Assembly: GCA_029237815.1 (NCBI GenBank)
Contig: JAQZBP010000001.1
Span: 310,001 to 374,000, forward strand
Length of the DNA stretch: 64,000 bases
Origin: Moraxellaceae bacterium
Lineage (GTDB): Bacteria; Pseudomonadota; Gammaproteobacteria; Pseudomonadales; Moraxellaceae
Reading direction: 5' to 3'
Every line of letters begins with the position of its first letter. Position 1 is the first letter of the stretch. Positions 20,102-45,739 of the stretch are shown in pieces. The position numbers and the translations under genes are program-made. The notes beneath the pieces are model-generated. The model worked only from the letters and a program-made list of their open reading frames with translations, was not told the DNA's origin and made no database searches.

Positions 20102-20134
20102 GGCCAGGCAATGTCGCCACGACATTGCCTGGCC
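20102..20134 (+). repeat. Perfect 15-bp hairpin between ptsH and darP
   Basis: The arms at 20102-20116 and 20120-20134 are exact reverse complements around a 3-nt loop (CCA). The structure starts 10 bases after the ptsH stop and ends just before the darP Shine-Dalgarno (20139-20145). No T tract follows. It may be an RNase processing or attenuation structure that uncouples darP from ptsH. Confidence 0.75.
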
Positions 20135-20152
20135 CCCGAGAAAGAATCCGCC

Positions 20153-20692
20153 ATGTCCCGCCACTCCATCCACGACGATCTCGACGACGACGATTTCGGC
20201 ACCAGCAAGACCGAGCAGAAAAAGGCCATGGAGCGCCTGCAGGCGCTTGGCGAACGACTGGCCACGCTGAACATCGACCAACTGAAGAAGATGCCGGTCT
20301 CGGAAACGCTTTTTACCGCGCTGGTGGAGCTGAAGCGGCTGAAGGCGCACGAGGCCGTGCGCCGCCACAAGCAGTACATTGGCAAGCTCATGCGCAGCGA
20401 GGACGAGGACGCCATCCTCGGCGTACTGAACCCGCTCGCCAATCCCTCGCTCAACAAGCAGCTCGAGCTGCTGATCGACCGCCTGCTCAACCAGGGCGAC
20501 TCCGCCATCAATGACGTGGTGCGCCGCTATCCTGCCGCCGAACGCCACACCATGCGCCAGCATGTGCGTGCCGCGCTGAAGGAGGGCCTCGAGCAGGCTG
20601 AACTCCCGGAAGAACAGCGGGCCTTGGCGGAGCGTCCGGCACGCAAGAAGCTGCTCATGTACCTGCGCGAAGTCGCAGCCCTGGCGGACTGA
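20153..20692 (+). CDS. darP: 50S ribosome-associated protein DarP/YjgA
   Basis: A 179-residue DUF615/YjgA protein with an acidic N terminus (DDLDDDDFG) and a helical body containing AVRRHKQYIGKLMR. DarP binds late 50S assembly intermediates and promotes peptidyl-transferase centre maturation. The ATG with GAGAAAG upstream is chosen over one 14 codons earlier that falls within the hairpin. In Pseudomonas this gene sits between tldD and pmbA; neither is present here. Confidence 0.93.
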   Translation: MSRHSIHDDLDDDDFGTSKTEQKKAMERLQALGERLATLNIDQLKKMPVSETLFTALVELKRLKAHEAVRRHKQYIGKLMRSEDEDAILGVLNPLANPSLNKQLELLIDRLLNQGDSAINDVVRRYPAAERHTMRQHVRAALKEGLEQAELPEEQRALAERPARKKLLMYLREVAALAD

Positions 20693-20736: not shown

Positions 20737-20763
20737 AAAGCCCGCTTCAATGGCGGGCTTTTT
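20737..20763 (+). terminator. Terminator after darP
   Basis: A 9-bp stem (20737-20745 / 20753-20761) is followed by TT, with five consecutive T in total. It lies between darP and the convergent HMG-CoA reductase gene. Confidence 0.85.
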
Positions 20764-20815: not shown

Positions 20816-21985
20816 CTAGGGACGGTTGCGCCCGAGCTTGTCGTGGCTAGACACCCACTGGTCCGAGACGATGGCCGAGGCCAGCGACAATTCACCGCAC
20901 AGCACGGTCGCCGCCACGATCTCCGCGAACTTCTGCACCTTGCCCTGCCCATAGCAGCCCATCACCTCCAGGCATTCCTTCTGCGTGGGCAGCCCGGTGC
21001 CGCCGCCATAAGTGGCCACGACCAGCGCCGGAATGGTGGCGGAAAAATAATAATCACCGTTGGGCTTCAGCTCGCCGTGCACGAAGCCGGCGGAGGATTC
21101 GGCCACGTTCGCCACGTCCTGCCCGCAGGCAATGAAAAGGGCCGTGACGCCATTGGCGAAGTGCGCGCCGTTGTTCACCGACCCCGCCATCAGCGCGCCC
21201 ATATTGGACAGCTGGCGCTGCTTGAACAGCGCCTCGCCGGTGGTGTGCATGACGTCCTGGATCAGCTTCGCCGGCAGCGTGATCTCGGCGACCACGCGCT
21301 TGCCGCGCGTATGCAGGCTGTTCACGTGCGAGTGCTTCTTGTCGGTATCGAAGTTGGCGGCGAGAGAGAAATGCTCAAGGCCGGCAGGGCGCTGCGCGAG
21401 GATCCACATGCAGGCCTCGCGCGTGGCCTTGGACACCATGTTCTGGCCGGCGGCGTCGCCCGTGGTGAAGCAGAAACGCAGCCAGCGCATCTTGCCCATG
21501 GCGTACTGCTCGATATTGCGCAGCCGGCCGGAGCGCGTGGTGGTTTCGGCCGCCGCCTTGATGGCAGTGAAATTGGCGACGACCCAGTCGCCGAAATCGC
21601 GGGCGTGGCGGGCATTTTCGAAGACGAACACCGGCGCGCGCTGCATGCTGTCGTCGATGACCGTGGTGCGCACACCGCCCGCCTCGCGTGTCAGGCGCAT
21701 GCCCCGGCTGTAGCTGGCGACAAGCGTGCCTTCGCTGGTGGCCATGGGTACGTAGAACTCGCCCTGCGCGTGCTCGCCCTGCACCAGCAGCGGACCGGCG
21801 AAGCCGAGCGGAATCTGCGCGACACCGGCGAAGCCCTCGATGTTGCCGGGCAGCAGGGCCGGGTCGATGGAGTAGCTGCCGACGTGGGTCAGGTCAGCGC
21901 CGGTCGCGGCCGTCACGGCCTGGCGGCGGGCCGATGCCATCTCGCGGGTGTAGTCGTTCTCGGAATCGCGCGGGAGTTTTTGCAT
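20816..21985 (-). CDS. HMG-CoA reductase, class I-like
   Basis: A 389-residue protein of the hydroxymethylglutaryl-CoA reductase family, which reduces HMG-CoA to mevalonate with NADPH. All four catalytic residues of class I enzymes have a counterpart: Glu85 (ATSEGTLVAS), Lys in DTDKK (216/217), Asp290 (ACGQDVANVAESS) and His381 (SSHDKLGRNR). The cofactor stretch GDAAGQNMVSKAT and the glycine-rich ATYGGGTGLPTQ are also present. GGAGCC precedes the ATG. It follows a cNMP-binding gene on the same strand with a 122-bp gap. Most bacteria of this type use the MEP pathway, and ispE is in this window, so its role is unclear. Confidence 0.9.
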   Translation of the reverse strand: MQKLPRDSENDYTREMASARRQAVTAATGADLTHVGSYSIDPALLPGNIEGFAGVAQIPLGFAGPLLVQGEHAQGEFYVPMATSEGTLVASYSRGMRLTREAGGVRTTVIDDSMQRAPVFVFENARHARDFGDWVVANFTAIKAAAETTTRSGRLRNIEQYAMGKMRWLRFCFTTGDAAGQNMVSKATREACMWILAQRPAGLEHFSLAANFDTDKKHSHVNSLHTRGKRVVAEITLPAKLIQDVMHTTGEALFKQRQLSNMGALMAGSVNNGAHFANGVTALFIACGQDVANVAESSAGFVHGELKPNGDYYFSATIPALVVATYGGGTGLPTQKECLEVMGCYGQGKVQKFAEIVAATVLCGELSLASAIVSDQWVSSHDKLGRNRP

Positions 21986-22080
21986 GTAAGGCTCCAGGTC
22001 AGAGCCCCTGTTGTGCCTGATGCGGACTTACTTGGCATTGGCGGAACTGACAGGCGCGGCAATCGCGCCGACGACGACAG

Positions 22081-22100
22081 GCAGCGCAGCGCAGCGCAGC
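22081..22100. repeat. (GCAGC)x4 short tandem repeat
   Basis: Four perfect copies of a 5-bp unit occupy 22081-22100, just after the stop of the cNMP-binding gene and about 95 bp upstream of the HMG-CoA reductase start. Copy number could vary by slippage and alter the leader length. Confidence 0.8.
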
Positions 22101-22107
22101 GTGAGTA

Positions 22108-22572
22108 TCAGGCGAGAGAAGGCATGAACTCGGCAAGACGATCCGAGGTCTTGCGCAGGTTGAAGGACAGCAGCAGCGCAATGCCCCGCATGATCTTGAT
22201 GCCGATGGCGGGATGCTCGGCCAGGATGTGCTCGAAGCTCTCGCGTGTCAGCACCACGAGGCTGGACGCCGTGGCGGCGCGCACGCTGGCGGAGCGCGTC
22301 AGGCGATCCAGCAGCGCCATCTCGCCGATGGAGCTGCCCTTGGCGAGCTTGCTGATGACCACCGGCTGCGCGCCCTGGTTCAGCTTGATCACCTCGAGGT
22401 TGCCGGAGGCGACGAAGCACAGGTAGTCACCCTTCTCGCCCTCGCGGAACACGAGCTCGCCCGGCGCGACCTTGCGCAGGTACAGCTGGCCCTCCAGCGT
22501 ATGCAGCTCATCAGGCTGCAGGGTGGAAAATATCGGGATCAGGCTCAGGTCGTCGGCCAGCCGTTCACTCAT
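22108..22572 (-). CDS. Stand-alone cyclic-nucleotide-binding domain protein
   Basis: A 154-residue protein consisting of one CRP-type cNMP-binding domain (about residues 12-125) and a short helical tail; there is no DNA-binding HTH and no membrane segment. The phosphate-binding cassette is intact: GEMALLD at 83-89, then Arg93-Ser94 in RSASVRA, so cAMP or cGMP binding is plausible. GGAGGG precedes the start. It lies upstream of HMG-CoA reductase and 90 bp downstream of nit on the same strand. It may act as a protein-protein regulator. Its target is unknown. Confidence 0.88.
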   Translation of the reverse strand: MSERLADDLSLIPIFSTLQPDELHTLEGQLYLRKVAPGELVFREGEKGDYLCFVASGNLEVIKLNQGAQPVVISKLAKGSSIGEMALLDRLTRSASVRAATASSLVVLTRESFEHILAEHPAIGIKIMRGIALLLSFNLRKTSDRLAEFMPSLA

Positions 22573-22662: not shown

Positions 22663-23487
22663 TTACAGGCGACGGTGACGATGGACGGGCATATTGCGGC
22701 GCAGGCGGTCCTGCTCGGCGGCGTCACGCTCCGCGGTGATGACCCCGGGCCGGTCGCCGGCGCTCCCGGCGAGCACGCGTCCCCAGGGGTCGATGATCTG
22801 GCTATGGCCCCAGGTCACGCGCGTGGCGGTGTGGCGGCCGCCTTGCGCCGCCCCGACGACATAGACCTGGTTCTCGATGGCGCGTGCGCGCAGCAGGGCC
22901 TGCCAGTGCGCCTCGCCGGTCAGCGCCGTGAAGGCGGCCGGCACGGTAATGATTTCCGCGCCGTCGTCGAGCAGCGCGCGGAACAACTCAGGAAAACGCA
23001 GGTCGTAGCAGATGCTGAGTCCGAGACGCCCCACGGGCGTGTTCACGCAGACAGGCTGGTCGCCGGGCTCGAACGTGGCGGACTCGCGGTAACTGCCCTG
23101 GGCGTCTCCGATGTCCACGTCAAAGAGATGGATCTTGTCGTAGCGCGCCACGACCTCGCCGTCGGAATCGATCACGTGGCAGGTCGTGCGCACGCGGCCG
23201 TCCGGCACCGGCGTGCCGTCCGGGCGTGTCGCCGCCGGCAGCGTGCCGGCCACGATCCAGAGGTCCAGCTCACGCGCAAGAGCGCCGAGGCGACCGAGCA
23301 GCTCGGGCAGGCGCGGCGCCACCTCGCGGTATTGCGCGGCGTCAAAGACGGCGAAGTTCTCGGGCAGGACGGCGAGCAGCGCCCCCGCTGAAGCCGCTTC
23401 GCGCAGCAGGCTGGCGGCGACCGCCCAGTTGGCCTCCAGGTCCACGCCGGAGCACATCTGTATGGCCGCAAGGCGGGGCTGGCTCAT
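22663..23487 (-). CDS. Carbon-nitrogen hydrolase (Nit family)
   Basis: A 274-residue nitrilase-superfamily amidase with the catalytic triad Glu43 (LPENF), Lys118 (YDKIHLFD) and Cys160 (SICYDLRFPE). The pattern is of the Nit1/YbeM branch, some members of which hydrolyse deaminated glutathione; I infer but cannot prove that substrate. It overlaps the yhdP stop by 4 nt (ATGA), as in Pseudomonas. Confidence 0.93.
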   Translation of the reverse strand: MSQPRLAAIQMCSGVDLEANWAVAASLLREAASAGALLAVLPENFAVFDAAQYREVAPRLPELLGRLGALARELDLWIVAGTLPAATRPDGTPVPDGRVRTTCHVIDSDGEVVARYDKIHLFDVDIGDAQGSYRESATFEPGDQPVCVNTPVGRLGLSICYDLRFPELFRALLDDGAEIITVPAAFTALTGEAHWQALLRARAIENQVYVVGAAQGGRHTATRVTWGHSQIIDPWGRVLAGSAGDRPGVITAERDAAEQDRLRRNMPVHRHRRL

Positions 23488-44882: not shown

Positions 44883-45739
44883 AACGGCTCGCCTCCCTCT
44901 CACTCCCCGCGCCAGCCAAGCTCAACCTCTTTCTTCATATCAACGGCCGGCGACCGGACGGCTACCACCTGCTGCAGACCGTTTTCCAGTTCCTCGACCG
45001 GGCCGACACCCTGCATTTCACCCGGCGCGAGGATGACGAGGTGCGCCTCTCGCCCGAACTGCCCGGGGTTCCGGCAACAGCCAATCTGGTCGTGCGTGCC
45101 GCGCGCCTGCTGCAGGCCGAAACCGGGTGCCGGCTGGGCGCGGACATCGTGCTGGAGAAGCGCCTGCCCATGGGCGGCGGCATCGGTGGCGGCTCCTCGG
45201 ACGCCGCCACCACCCTGCTCGCCCTGAACCGCCTCTGGGAGCTGTGCCTGGATGAGGACCGGTTGGCCAGCCTCGGCCTCCAGTTGGGAGCCGATGTCCC
45301 CGTCTTCGTGCGCGGTCGGGCCGCCTTTGCCGAAGGGGTCGGCGAGCGCCTGGAGCCGGTCGATATCGAGCAACCCTGGTACCTCGTTTTGACGCCAGAG
45401 GCCCATGTCGCCACGGCCGACGTCTTCCGGCACCCGCAATTGACACGTCATACCCCCGCCATTACATTAGCCGCCTTTCGCGCGGGAGGTGGGGCCGAAA
45501 CCCTGCGAAATGACTGCGAAAACGTGGTCAGGACGCTCTCTCCCGAGGTCGATGCCGCGCTGGTTTGGCTCTCTTCACATGGCCACGCGCGGATGACCGG
45601 AACCGGTGCCTGCTGTTTCCTGCCCTGCCCCGATCGCGCCAGCGCCGAGTCACTGCTGGCACGGAGCCCGATCCCCGGCTTCGTGGCGCACGGCATGAAT
45701 CGCTCGGCAGCGCATGTCGCTCTTGATGCCGTCGGTTGA
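44879..45739 (+). CDS. ispE: 4-diphosphocytidyl-2-C-methylerythritol kinase
   Basis: A 286-residue GHMP kinase of the MEP isoprenoid pathway. It has the N-terminal PAPAKLNLFLHINGRRPDGYH, the ATP loop PMGGGIGGGSSDAA and the C-terminal RMTGTGACCF. It starts at GTG within the GTGA overlap with lolB; the longer upstream frame only overlaps lolB. Its presence shows that the organism has at least this MEP step although an HMG-CoA reductase gene is also in the window. Confidence 0.96.
   Translation: MKRLASLSLPAPAKLNLFLHINGRRPDGYHLLQTVFQFLDRADTLHFTRREDDEVRLSPELPGVPATANLVVRAARLLQAETGCRLGADIVLEKRLPMGGGIGGGSSDAATTLLALNRLWELCLDEDRLASLGLQLGADVPVFVRGRAAFAEGVGERLEPVDIEQPWYLVLTPEAHVATADVFRHPQLTRHTPAITLAAFRAGGGAETLRNDCENVVRTLSPEVDAALVWLSSHGHARMTGTGACCFLPCPDRASAESLLARSPIPGFVAHGMNRSAAHVALDAVG

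What the first reader, a model, noticed from the sequence alone, without database searches (positions are those of the whole stretch)
20816..22572. HMG-CoA reductase next to a stand-alone cNMP-binding protein, in place of tldD/pmbA
Seen: a 389-aa HMG-CoA reductase with all four catalytic positions kept (Glu85, Lys216/217, Asp290, His381) follows a 154-aa cNMP-binding protein on the same strand. The MEP-pathway gene ispE lies at 44.9 kb. Known: most bacteria rely on the MEP pathway, and HMG-CoA reductase is the mevalonate-pathway step. In Pseudomonas-type gene order tldD, yjgA/darP and pmbA sit between nit and ptsH; here darP remains but tldD and pmbA are absent. Inference: the pair may be a cyclic-nucleotide-gated mevalonate or acyl-CoA function acquired at this locus.
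Basis: partly seen in the sequence, partly recalled or inferred. Interest (0 to 1): 0.72.

Follow-up and report, generated by a model that had tools for sequence, protein, structure and literature searches.

The report
Orphan HMG-CoA-reductase-like enzyme, no mevalonate pathway
A bacterium that makes its isoprenoids by the usual MEP route carries a lone, well-conserved relative of HMG-CoA reductase (the statin target in humans); the same enzyme recurs in three bacterial phyla, always without the enzyme that feeds the mevalonate pathway, and the cyclic-nucleotide-binding gene beside it is probably just a neighbour.

Summary
The 389-aa gene is a genuine class-I-fold HMG-CoA reductase homologue with Glu85, Lys216, Asp290 and His381 kept, beside a 154-aa cNMP-binding protein. 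The genome has no HMG-CoA synthase, its only GHMP kinase is ispE, and dxr is present, so this is not pathway replacement. Two parts of the interpretation fail. (1) The cNMP gene belongs ancestrally to the locus (nit–cNMP, then darP) and is conserved in relatives that lack the reductase or carry it elsewhere. (2) tldD/pmbA are missing from all 37 same-family genomes searched, with or without the reductase, so nothing was replaced. The reductase belongs to an orphan clade spread over Pseudomonadota, Bacteroidota and Actinomycetota; 0 of 30 such genomes have HMG-CoA synthase. The clade keeps the catalytic residues, but all 86 sequences lack the lysine (human Lys735) that anchors the HMG carboxylate and carry DAAGQN for DAMGMN. 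The window's genome has complete leucine (Liu) and acyclic-terpene (Atu)-type operons but no detectable HMG-CoA lyase. I infer a CoA-dependent four-electron oxidoreductase of HMG-CoA or a related carboxyacyl-CoA in catabolism. The substrate is unproven; a Runella operon with 4-hydroxybutyryl-CoA dehydratase points to a C4 alternative.

The parts
20816..21985 (-). Orphan class-I-fold HMG-CoA reductase homologue, 389 aa (subfamily signature DAAGQN / DKKHSxxN / ATYGGGT / W377)
   Evidence: PF00368 413 bits; 6hr7 best PDB match; model TM 0.91 to 6hr7; subfamily residues
22108..22572 (-). Stand-alone cNMP-binding protein, 154 aa; ancestral neighbour of nit, judged not a functional partner
   Evidence: PF00027 75 bits; orthologues unlinked to the reductase in relatives; intact phosphate-binding cassette
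22663..23487 (-). nit: carbon-nitrogen hydrolase (deaminated-glutathione-amidase-like), context gene
   Evidence: PF00795 197 bits; NF043013-like, below cut-off
20111..20692 (+). darP (yjgA), convergent with the reductase gene; context gene
   Evidence: PF04751 129 bits; NF003593 above cut-off
20739..20759 (-). GC-rich inverted repeat AGCCCGC-cattgaa-GCGGGCT just downstream of the reductase stop; possible shared terminator
   Evidence: read by eye; not listed by the consensus scan
45083..45316 (+). GHMP kinase N domain of ispE (MEP pathway), the only GHMP kinase hit in the assembly
   Evidence: G000:C11:355083-355316; window = C11:310001-374000

Best explanation
The gene encodes a stand-alone, class-I-fold HMG-CoA-reductase paralogue from a bacterial clade that does not take part in isoprenoid synthesis. 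It most likely performs the HMGR chemistry (acyl-CoA + 2 NAD(P)H <-> primary alcohol + CoA, via bound aldehyde, with the Glu-Lys-Asp-His machinery) on HMG-CoA or a related carboxy-acyl-CoA in catabolism. In the window's organism the likeliest source is the leucine (Liu) and acyclic-isoprenoid (Atu) pathways, which make 3-hydroxy-3-alkylglutaryl-CoAs while the canonical HMG-CoA lyase was not found; the reductase would remove, or in reverse recover, these intermediates. The cNMP-binding gene is a positional neighbour that predates it at the locus. Shown: fold, catalytic residues, orphan status, unlinked cNMP gene, Liu and Atu-type operons without a detected lyase. Inferred: NADPH use, substrate, direction, physiological role.
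For: Fold and catalytic residues. Orphan: no HMG-CoA synthase in the own genome nor in any of 30 further reductase-bearing genomes from Pseudomonadota, Bacteroidota and Actinomycetota; only ispE among GHMP kinases; dxr present. HMG-CoA source present: the own genome encodes IVD, MCC-beta, methylglutaconyl/carboxygeranoyl-CoA hydratase and MCC-alpha in one run (L180), and an AtuA-SDR-carboxylase-dehydrogenase-hydratase-carboxylase-SDR-ligase run (L181). No HMG-CoA lyase (NF004283) in the own genome or in 18 of 23 reductase-bearing genomes of the family. Among carboxylase-bearing genomes of the family the lyase is present in 5 of 20 with the reductase against 27 of 36 without it (Fisher p 0.0005, not corrected for phylogeny). 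Acetoacetate-CoA ligase follows the Liu run in G006, which has a lyase, but not in G000 or G012, which lack it. cNMP gene unlinked.
Against: The HMG-carboxylate anchor Lys735 of human HMGR is Ser/Thr/Asn/Ala in 86 of 86 clade members, and Met655/Met657 are Ala/Gln, so HMG-CoA may not be the substrate. Some reductase-bearing genomes have neither lyase nor MCC/GCC-type carboxylase (G043, 95% complete; G084, 99% complete), so no known HMG-CoA source. Five genomes of the window's own genus carry both reductase and lyase. [quoted passage not shown] The associations are concentrated in few genera. The own assembly is 93% complete.
Confidence: 0.45

Rival explanations
1. The clade acts on a different, shorter carboxy-acyl-CoA, for example succinyl-CoA <-> 4-hydroxybutyrate + CoA, feeding 4-hydroxybutyryl-CoA dehydratase and crotonyl-CoA metabolism.
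For: In four Runella genomes the reductase is followed on the same strand by enoyl-CoA hydratase and then a 4-hydroxybutyryl-CoA dehydratase (best PDB matches 6vjr, 795 bits, and 1u8v); two Saprospiraceae carry the dehydratase 0.5-2.1 kb upstream of the reductase. Lys735 is lost in the whole clade while Arg257 is fixed (85 of 86), so the acyl end of the pocket is remodelled.
Against: The dehydratase is absent from the own genome and from most reductase-bearing relatives (5 of 118 genomes have it). The linkage is limited to Runella and one Saprospiraceae branch. No literature link was found.
Confidence: 0.2
2. It is an HMG-CoA reductase working in the catabolic direction on environmental mevalonate (mevalonate + CoA -> HMG-CoA), in the manner of Pseudomonas mevalonii.
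For: Catalytic residues kept; HMGR chemistry is reversible (established knowledge); hosts are heterotrophs without a synthase.
Against: Class I, not class II (TIGR00532 34 bits against a 260 cut-off). HMG-CoA lyase, which such a route needs, is missing from 18 of 23 reductase-bearing genomes of the family. No transporter or lyase was recurrent among the neighbours scanned.
Confidence: 0.12
3. A cNMP-gated reductase: the neighbouring cNMP-binding protein controls the enzyme.
For: Adjacent on the same strand in the seven genomes of the window's genus that have the reductase; cyclic-nucleotide pocket intact.
Against: cNMP orthologues (43-70% identical) occur next to nit in relatives without the reductase or with it on another contig, with the same pocket and C-terminal tail. 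Reductase loci outside the genus lack this neighbour.
Confidence: 0.05
4. Real HMG-CoA reductase feeding an unrecognised mevalonate shunt to isoprenoids.
For: Class I fold and catalytic residues.
Against: No HMG-CoA synthase, no mevalonate-family GHMP kinase, MEP genes dxr and ispE present.
Confidence: 0.04

Closest known systems
Archaeal/eukaryotic class I HMG-CoA reductase (6hr7/6hr8 Methanothermococcus; 1dqa human; 7uli Arabidopsis)
   Same: Fold (model TM 0.91 to 6hr7), Glu/Lys/Asp/His catalytic residues, Arg590, Asp690, Lys692, Asn755 and Arg871 equivalents kept
   Different: No Lys735 equivalent (Ser260), DAAGQN for DAMGMN, DKKHS for DKKPA, ATYGGG for GTVGGG, Trp377; no mevalonate pathway around it; 40-43% identity
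Class II (degradative) HMG-CoA reductase, Pseudomonas mevalonii type
   Same: Reductase superfamily; would also work without a biosynthetic pathway
   Different: TIGR00532 only 34 bits against a 260 cut-off; closer to class I throughout
HMGR-APH fusion proteins of Moraxellaceae relatives, gamma proteobacterium HdN1 and a Streptomyces plasmid
   Same: Share the DAAGQN motif and the loss of Lys735; 38-43% identical
   Different: About 770-960 aa with a C-terminal aminoglycoside-phosphotransferase-like kinase domain; the Moraxellaceae and HdN1 copies sit in a lipid-type gene cluster (L157, L159); a separate branch in the tree
Vibrio class I HMGR
   Same: DASGQN motif and no Lys735 equivalent
   Different: 40% identical; groups with the fusion branch rather than with this clade

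Membership tests
Class I HMG-CoA reductase | Full-length HMG-CoA_red domain and class I fold | tested here: met
   PF00368 413 bits, positions 3-368 of 368; TM 0.91 to 6hr7
Class I HMG-CoA reductase | Catalytic Glu559, Lys691, Asp767, His866 | tested here: met
   Invariant in 86 of 86 clade members
Class I HMG-CoA reductase | HMG-binding residues incl. Lys735 salt bridge and Ser684 (roles: PMC9500038) | tested here: not met
   Arg590, Asp690, Lys692 and Asn755 equivalents kept; Lys735 is Ser/Thr/Asn/Ala in 86 of 86; Ser684 is Ala/Glu in most, Ser in 17
Class I HMG-CoA reductase | NADPH-binding DAMGMN motif | tested here: not met
   DAAGQN in 86 of 86
Class I HMG-CoA reductase | Curated NADPH-HMGR model TIGR00533 above cut-off | tested here: not met
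   355 bits against a 442 cut-off
Class I HMG-CoA reductase | Reduces HMG-CoA to mevalonate with NADPH | not testable with these tools
   needs purified enzyme
Mevalonate pathway | HMG-CoA synthase and mevalonate kinases in the genome | tested here: not met
   No PF08540; only ispE among GHMP kinases
cNMP-gated enzyme system | Conserved linkage or fusion of cNMP protein and reductase | tested here: not met
   Linked only in one genus; unlinked or reductase absent elsewhere
Cyclic-nucleotide-binding protein (P0002) | Intact phosphate-binding cassette (G-E ... R-S/T-A) | tested here: met
   GEMALLDRLTRSAS; conserved in all 22 orthologues aligned

The most novel reading that the evidence does not exclude
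The clade is an uncharacterised enzyme family with HMGR chemistry on a substrate other than HMG-CoA (for example succinyl-CoA/4-hydroxybutyrate, or 3-hydroxy-3-isohexenylglutaryl-CoA), so that many bacterial genes now annotated 'hydroxymethylglutaryl-CoA reductase' are misannotated.
Probability: 0.4. Interest if true: 0.72.

Novelty: new variant of a known kind. Interest (0 to 1): 0.5.

Why it matters
The gene is annotated as the rate-limiting mevalonate enzyme (for example on an Alteromonas plasmid), yet all 30 further genomes tested across three phyla lack the enzyme that makes its substrate. A recent review flags lone HmgR genes in MEP-using Streptomyces as unexplained (PMC13001223). A catalytically intact but pocket-altered clade makes the question testable with one purified enzyme and a short substrate panel. 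It bears on genome-based calls of mevalonate capacity, on leucine and isoprenoid breakdown in bacteria that lack HMG-CoA lyase, and on a possible NAD(P)H-dependent acyl-CoA-to-alcohol catalyst.

Tried and rejected
Rejected: pathway replacement (no mvaS or mevalonate kinases, MEP genes present); functional coupling to cNMP (unlinked orthologues); replacement of tldD/pmbA (family-wide absence). A search for recurring neighbours over 84 flanking proteins gave nothing common to all lineages; only the AbfD/HpaB-family neighbours in Bacteroidota stood out. I first thought no HMG-CoA source existed in the own genome because the synthase and lyase are absent, but the MCC search showed a complete Liu run, so that claim was withdrawn. 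AbfD as a general partner was rejected (absent in own genome). Literature searches for this clade found no description.

Full report
What is there. The window lies in a 3.12-Mb, 12-contig assembly, about 93% complete; named relatives are Moraxellaceae/Pseudomonadales. On the minus strand the order is rng - yhdP - nit - cNMP - HMGR, convergent with ptsH - darP. The reductase (20816-21985) matches PF00368 over its whole length; the best solved relative is the archaeal class I enzyme 6hr7. An AlphaFold model from a 51-sequence alignment (mean pLDDT 87, pTM 0.88) matches 6hr7 at TM 0.91 and human and plant class I structures at 0.82-0.89.

No mevalonate pathway. The own genome has no HMG-CoA synthase. 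Its only GHMP-kinase hit is ispE at window 45083-45316, and dxr is present on contig C6. Thirty further genomes that carry the reductase, from Pseudomonadota, Bacteroidota and Actinomycetota, also have no HMG-CoA synthase. The orphan state is thus a property of the clade and not of one draft assembly.

The neighbour. The cNMP protein has a complete cyclic-nucleotide cassette, but its place next to nit is ancestral. In same-family genomes without the stand-alone reductase, nit-cNMP directly faces darP (L148, L150, L152). In G008, of the window's genus, a DUF2806 gene lies between cNMP and darP instead. In G012, G015 and G020 the reductase and the cNMP gene lie on different contigs. Outside the genus no reductase locus examined has the cNMP neighbour. 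The simplest reading is insertion of the reductase into the cNMP-darP gap in the ancestor of this genus. tldD/pmbA (PF01523) are absent from the own genome and from all 37 same-family genomes searched, with or without the reductase, so the reductase did not replace them.

A distinct clade. The stand-alone reductase occurs in 23 of 73 same-family genomes. A pattern scan found 191 related stretches in a genome collection, of which 80 were kept: Alcanivorax, Alkanindiges, Agitococcus, Paraperlucidibaca, Ketobacter, gamma proteobacterium HdN1, Runella, Saprospiraceae, Solirubrobacterales and others. In a maximum-likelihood tree these form one group (100/99) apart from archaeal/plant class I and from a Vibrio plus fusion branch; several reference branches are long, so deeper joins are unsure. 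Over 86 distinct sequences the catalytic Glu, Lys, Asp and His are invariant, as are the equivalents of Arg590, Asn755 and Arg871; Asp690 and Lys692 are kept in 85. The DAMGMN motif is DAAGQN in all 86, Lys735 is never Lys or Arg, Ala694 is Ser in all, and Trp377 and (85 of 86) Arg257 are fixed. In human and plant enzymes Lys735 (plant Lys441) makes the salt bridge to the HMG carboxylate (PMC9500038). Chemistry is therefore probably kept while recognition of the acyl end is changed. NADPH use is inferred only.

Metabolic setting. The own genome carries a Liu-type run (isovaleryl-CoA dehydrogenase, MCC-beta at 73% identity, hydratase, MCC-alpha; L180) and an Atu-type run with AtuA (PF07287, 481 bits; L181). 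These pathways make 3-hydroxy-3-methylglutaryl-CoA and its isohexenyl homologue (established knowledge; PMC4847356). HMG-CoA lyase (NF004283) was not found in the own genome nor in 18 of 23 reductase-bearing genomes of the family, several of them 99-100% complete. Within the family the reductase and the lyase tend to exclude each other: 5 of 23 against 27 of 50, p 0.012; among carboxylase-bearing genomes 5 of 20 against 27 of 36, p 0.0005. The reductase goes with the second, GCC-like carboxylase (18 of 23 against 18 of 50, p 0.001). These p-values ignore relatedness and rest on about 16 genera. The 43-49% carboxylase hits were taken as GCC-like; their operons were inspected only in G000, G017 and G024. 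In G006, which has a lyase, an acetoacetate-CoA ligase follows the Liu run; in G000 and G012, which lack a lyase, it does not.

Reading. The best-supported account is a non-isoprenogenic, HMGR-type, CoA-dependent four-electron oxidoreductase that handles HMG-CoA or a homologue in leucine/isoprenoid breakdown. Against this, G043 and G084 have neither lyase nor such carboxylases yet keep the reductase, AtuA may supply a lyase (PMC4847356), and Lys735 is lost. The chief rival, a C4 substrate, rests on the Runella operon reductase - enoyl-CoA hydratase - 4-hydroxybutyryl-CoA dehydratase in four genomes and nearby dehydratase genes in two Saprospiraceae, but the dehydratase is absent from the own genome. 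Only biochemistry can decide. No earlier description of this clade was found in the open literature searched; lone HmgR genes in MEP-using Streptomyces are noted as unexplained (PMC13001223).

Noticed in passing
L031:346-3072(-), L157:7609-10377(+), L159:6702-9500(+), L032: Relatives encode about 770-960-aa fusions: N-terminal region, HMGR-like domain, C-terminal APH-like kinase domain. In L157 they sit with LolA-like, MMPL transporter, prenyltransferase (NF004617), PEP-synthase-like and fatty-acid-CoA-ligase/OleC-like genes, which looks like an undescribed lipid or isoprenoid gene cluster.
   Followed up: partly
L173 (Streptomyces sp. NBC_01435 plasmid): A Streptomyces plasmid also carries an HMGR-APH-like fusion, so the architecture is not limited to Gammaproteobacteria.
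   Followed up: no
L074, L075, L076, L078 (Runella); L077, L079 (Saprospiraceae): Reductase, enoyl-CoA hydratase and 4-hydroxybutyryl-CoA dehydratase lie in tandem in Runella; the dehydratase lies near the reductase in two Saprospiraceae.
   Followed up: partly
L180, L182 (own genome and G012): Liu operons without HMG-CoA lyase and without the acetoacetate-CoA ligase that G006 has; the terminal step of leucine breakdown in these bacteria is unclear.
   Followed up: partly
L174 (Sinorhizobium meliloti plasmid pMl1): A distant HMGR homologue (34%) lies inside an acyl-CoA carboxylase / indolepyruvate-ferredoxin-oxidoreductase / MmgE-PrpD operon.
   Followed up: no
L171 (Alteromonas macleodii plasmid pBGP9): A plasmid-borne copy of the same reductase clade (72%), downstream of AMP-ligase, iron-containing redox enzyme and SDR genes; suggests mobility.
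   Followed up: no
whole family; own genome: tldD/pmbA (PF01523) are missing from all 37 same-family genomes searched, although nit, cNMP and darP stay adjacent in relatives without an insertion.
   Followed up: yes
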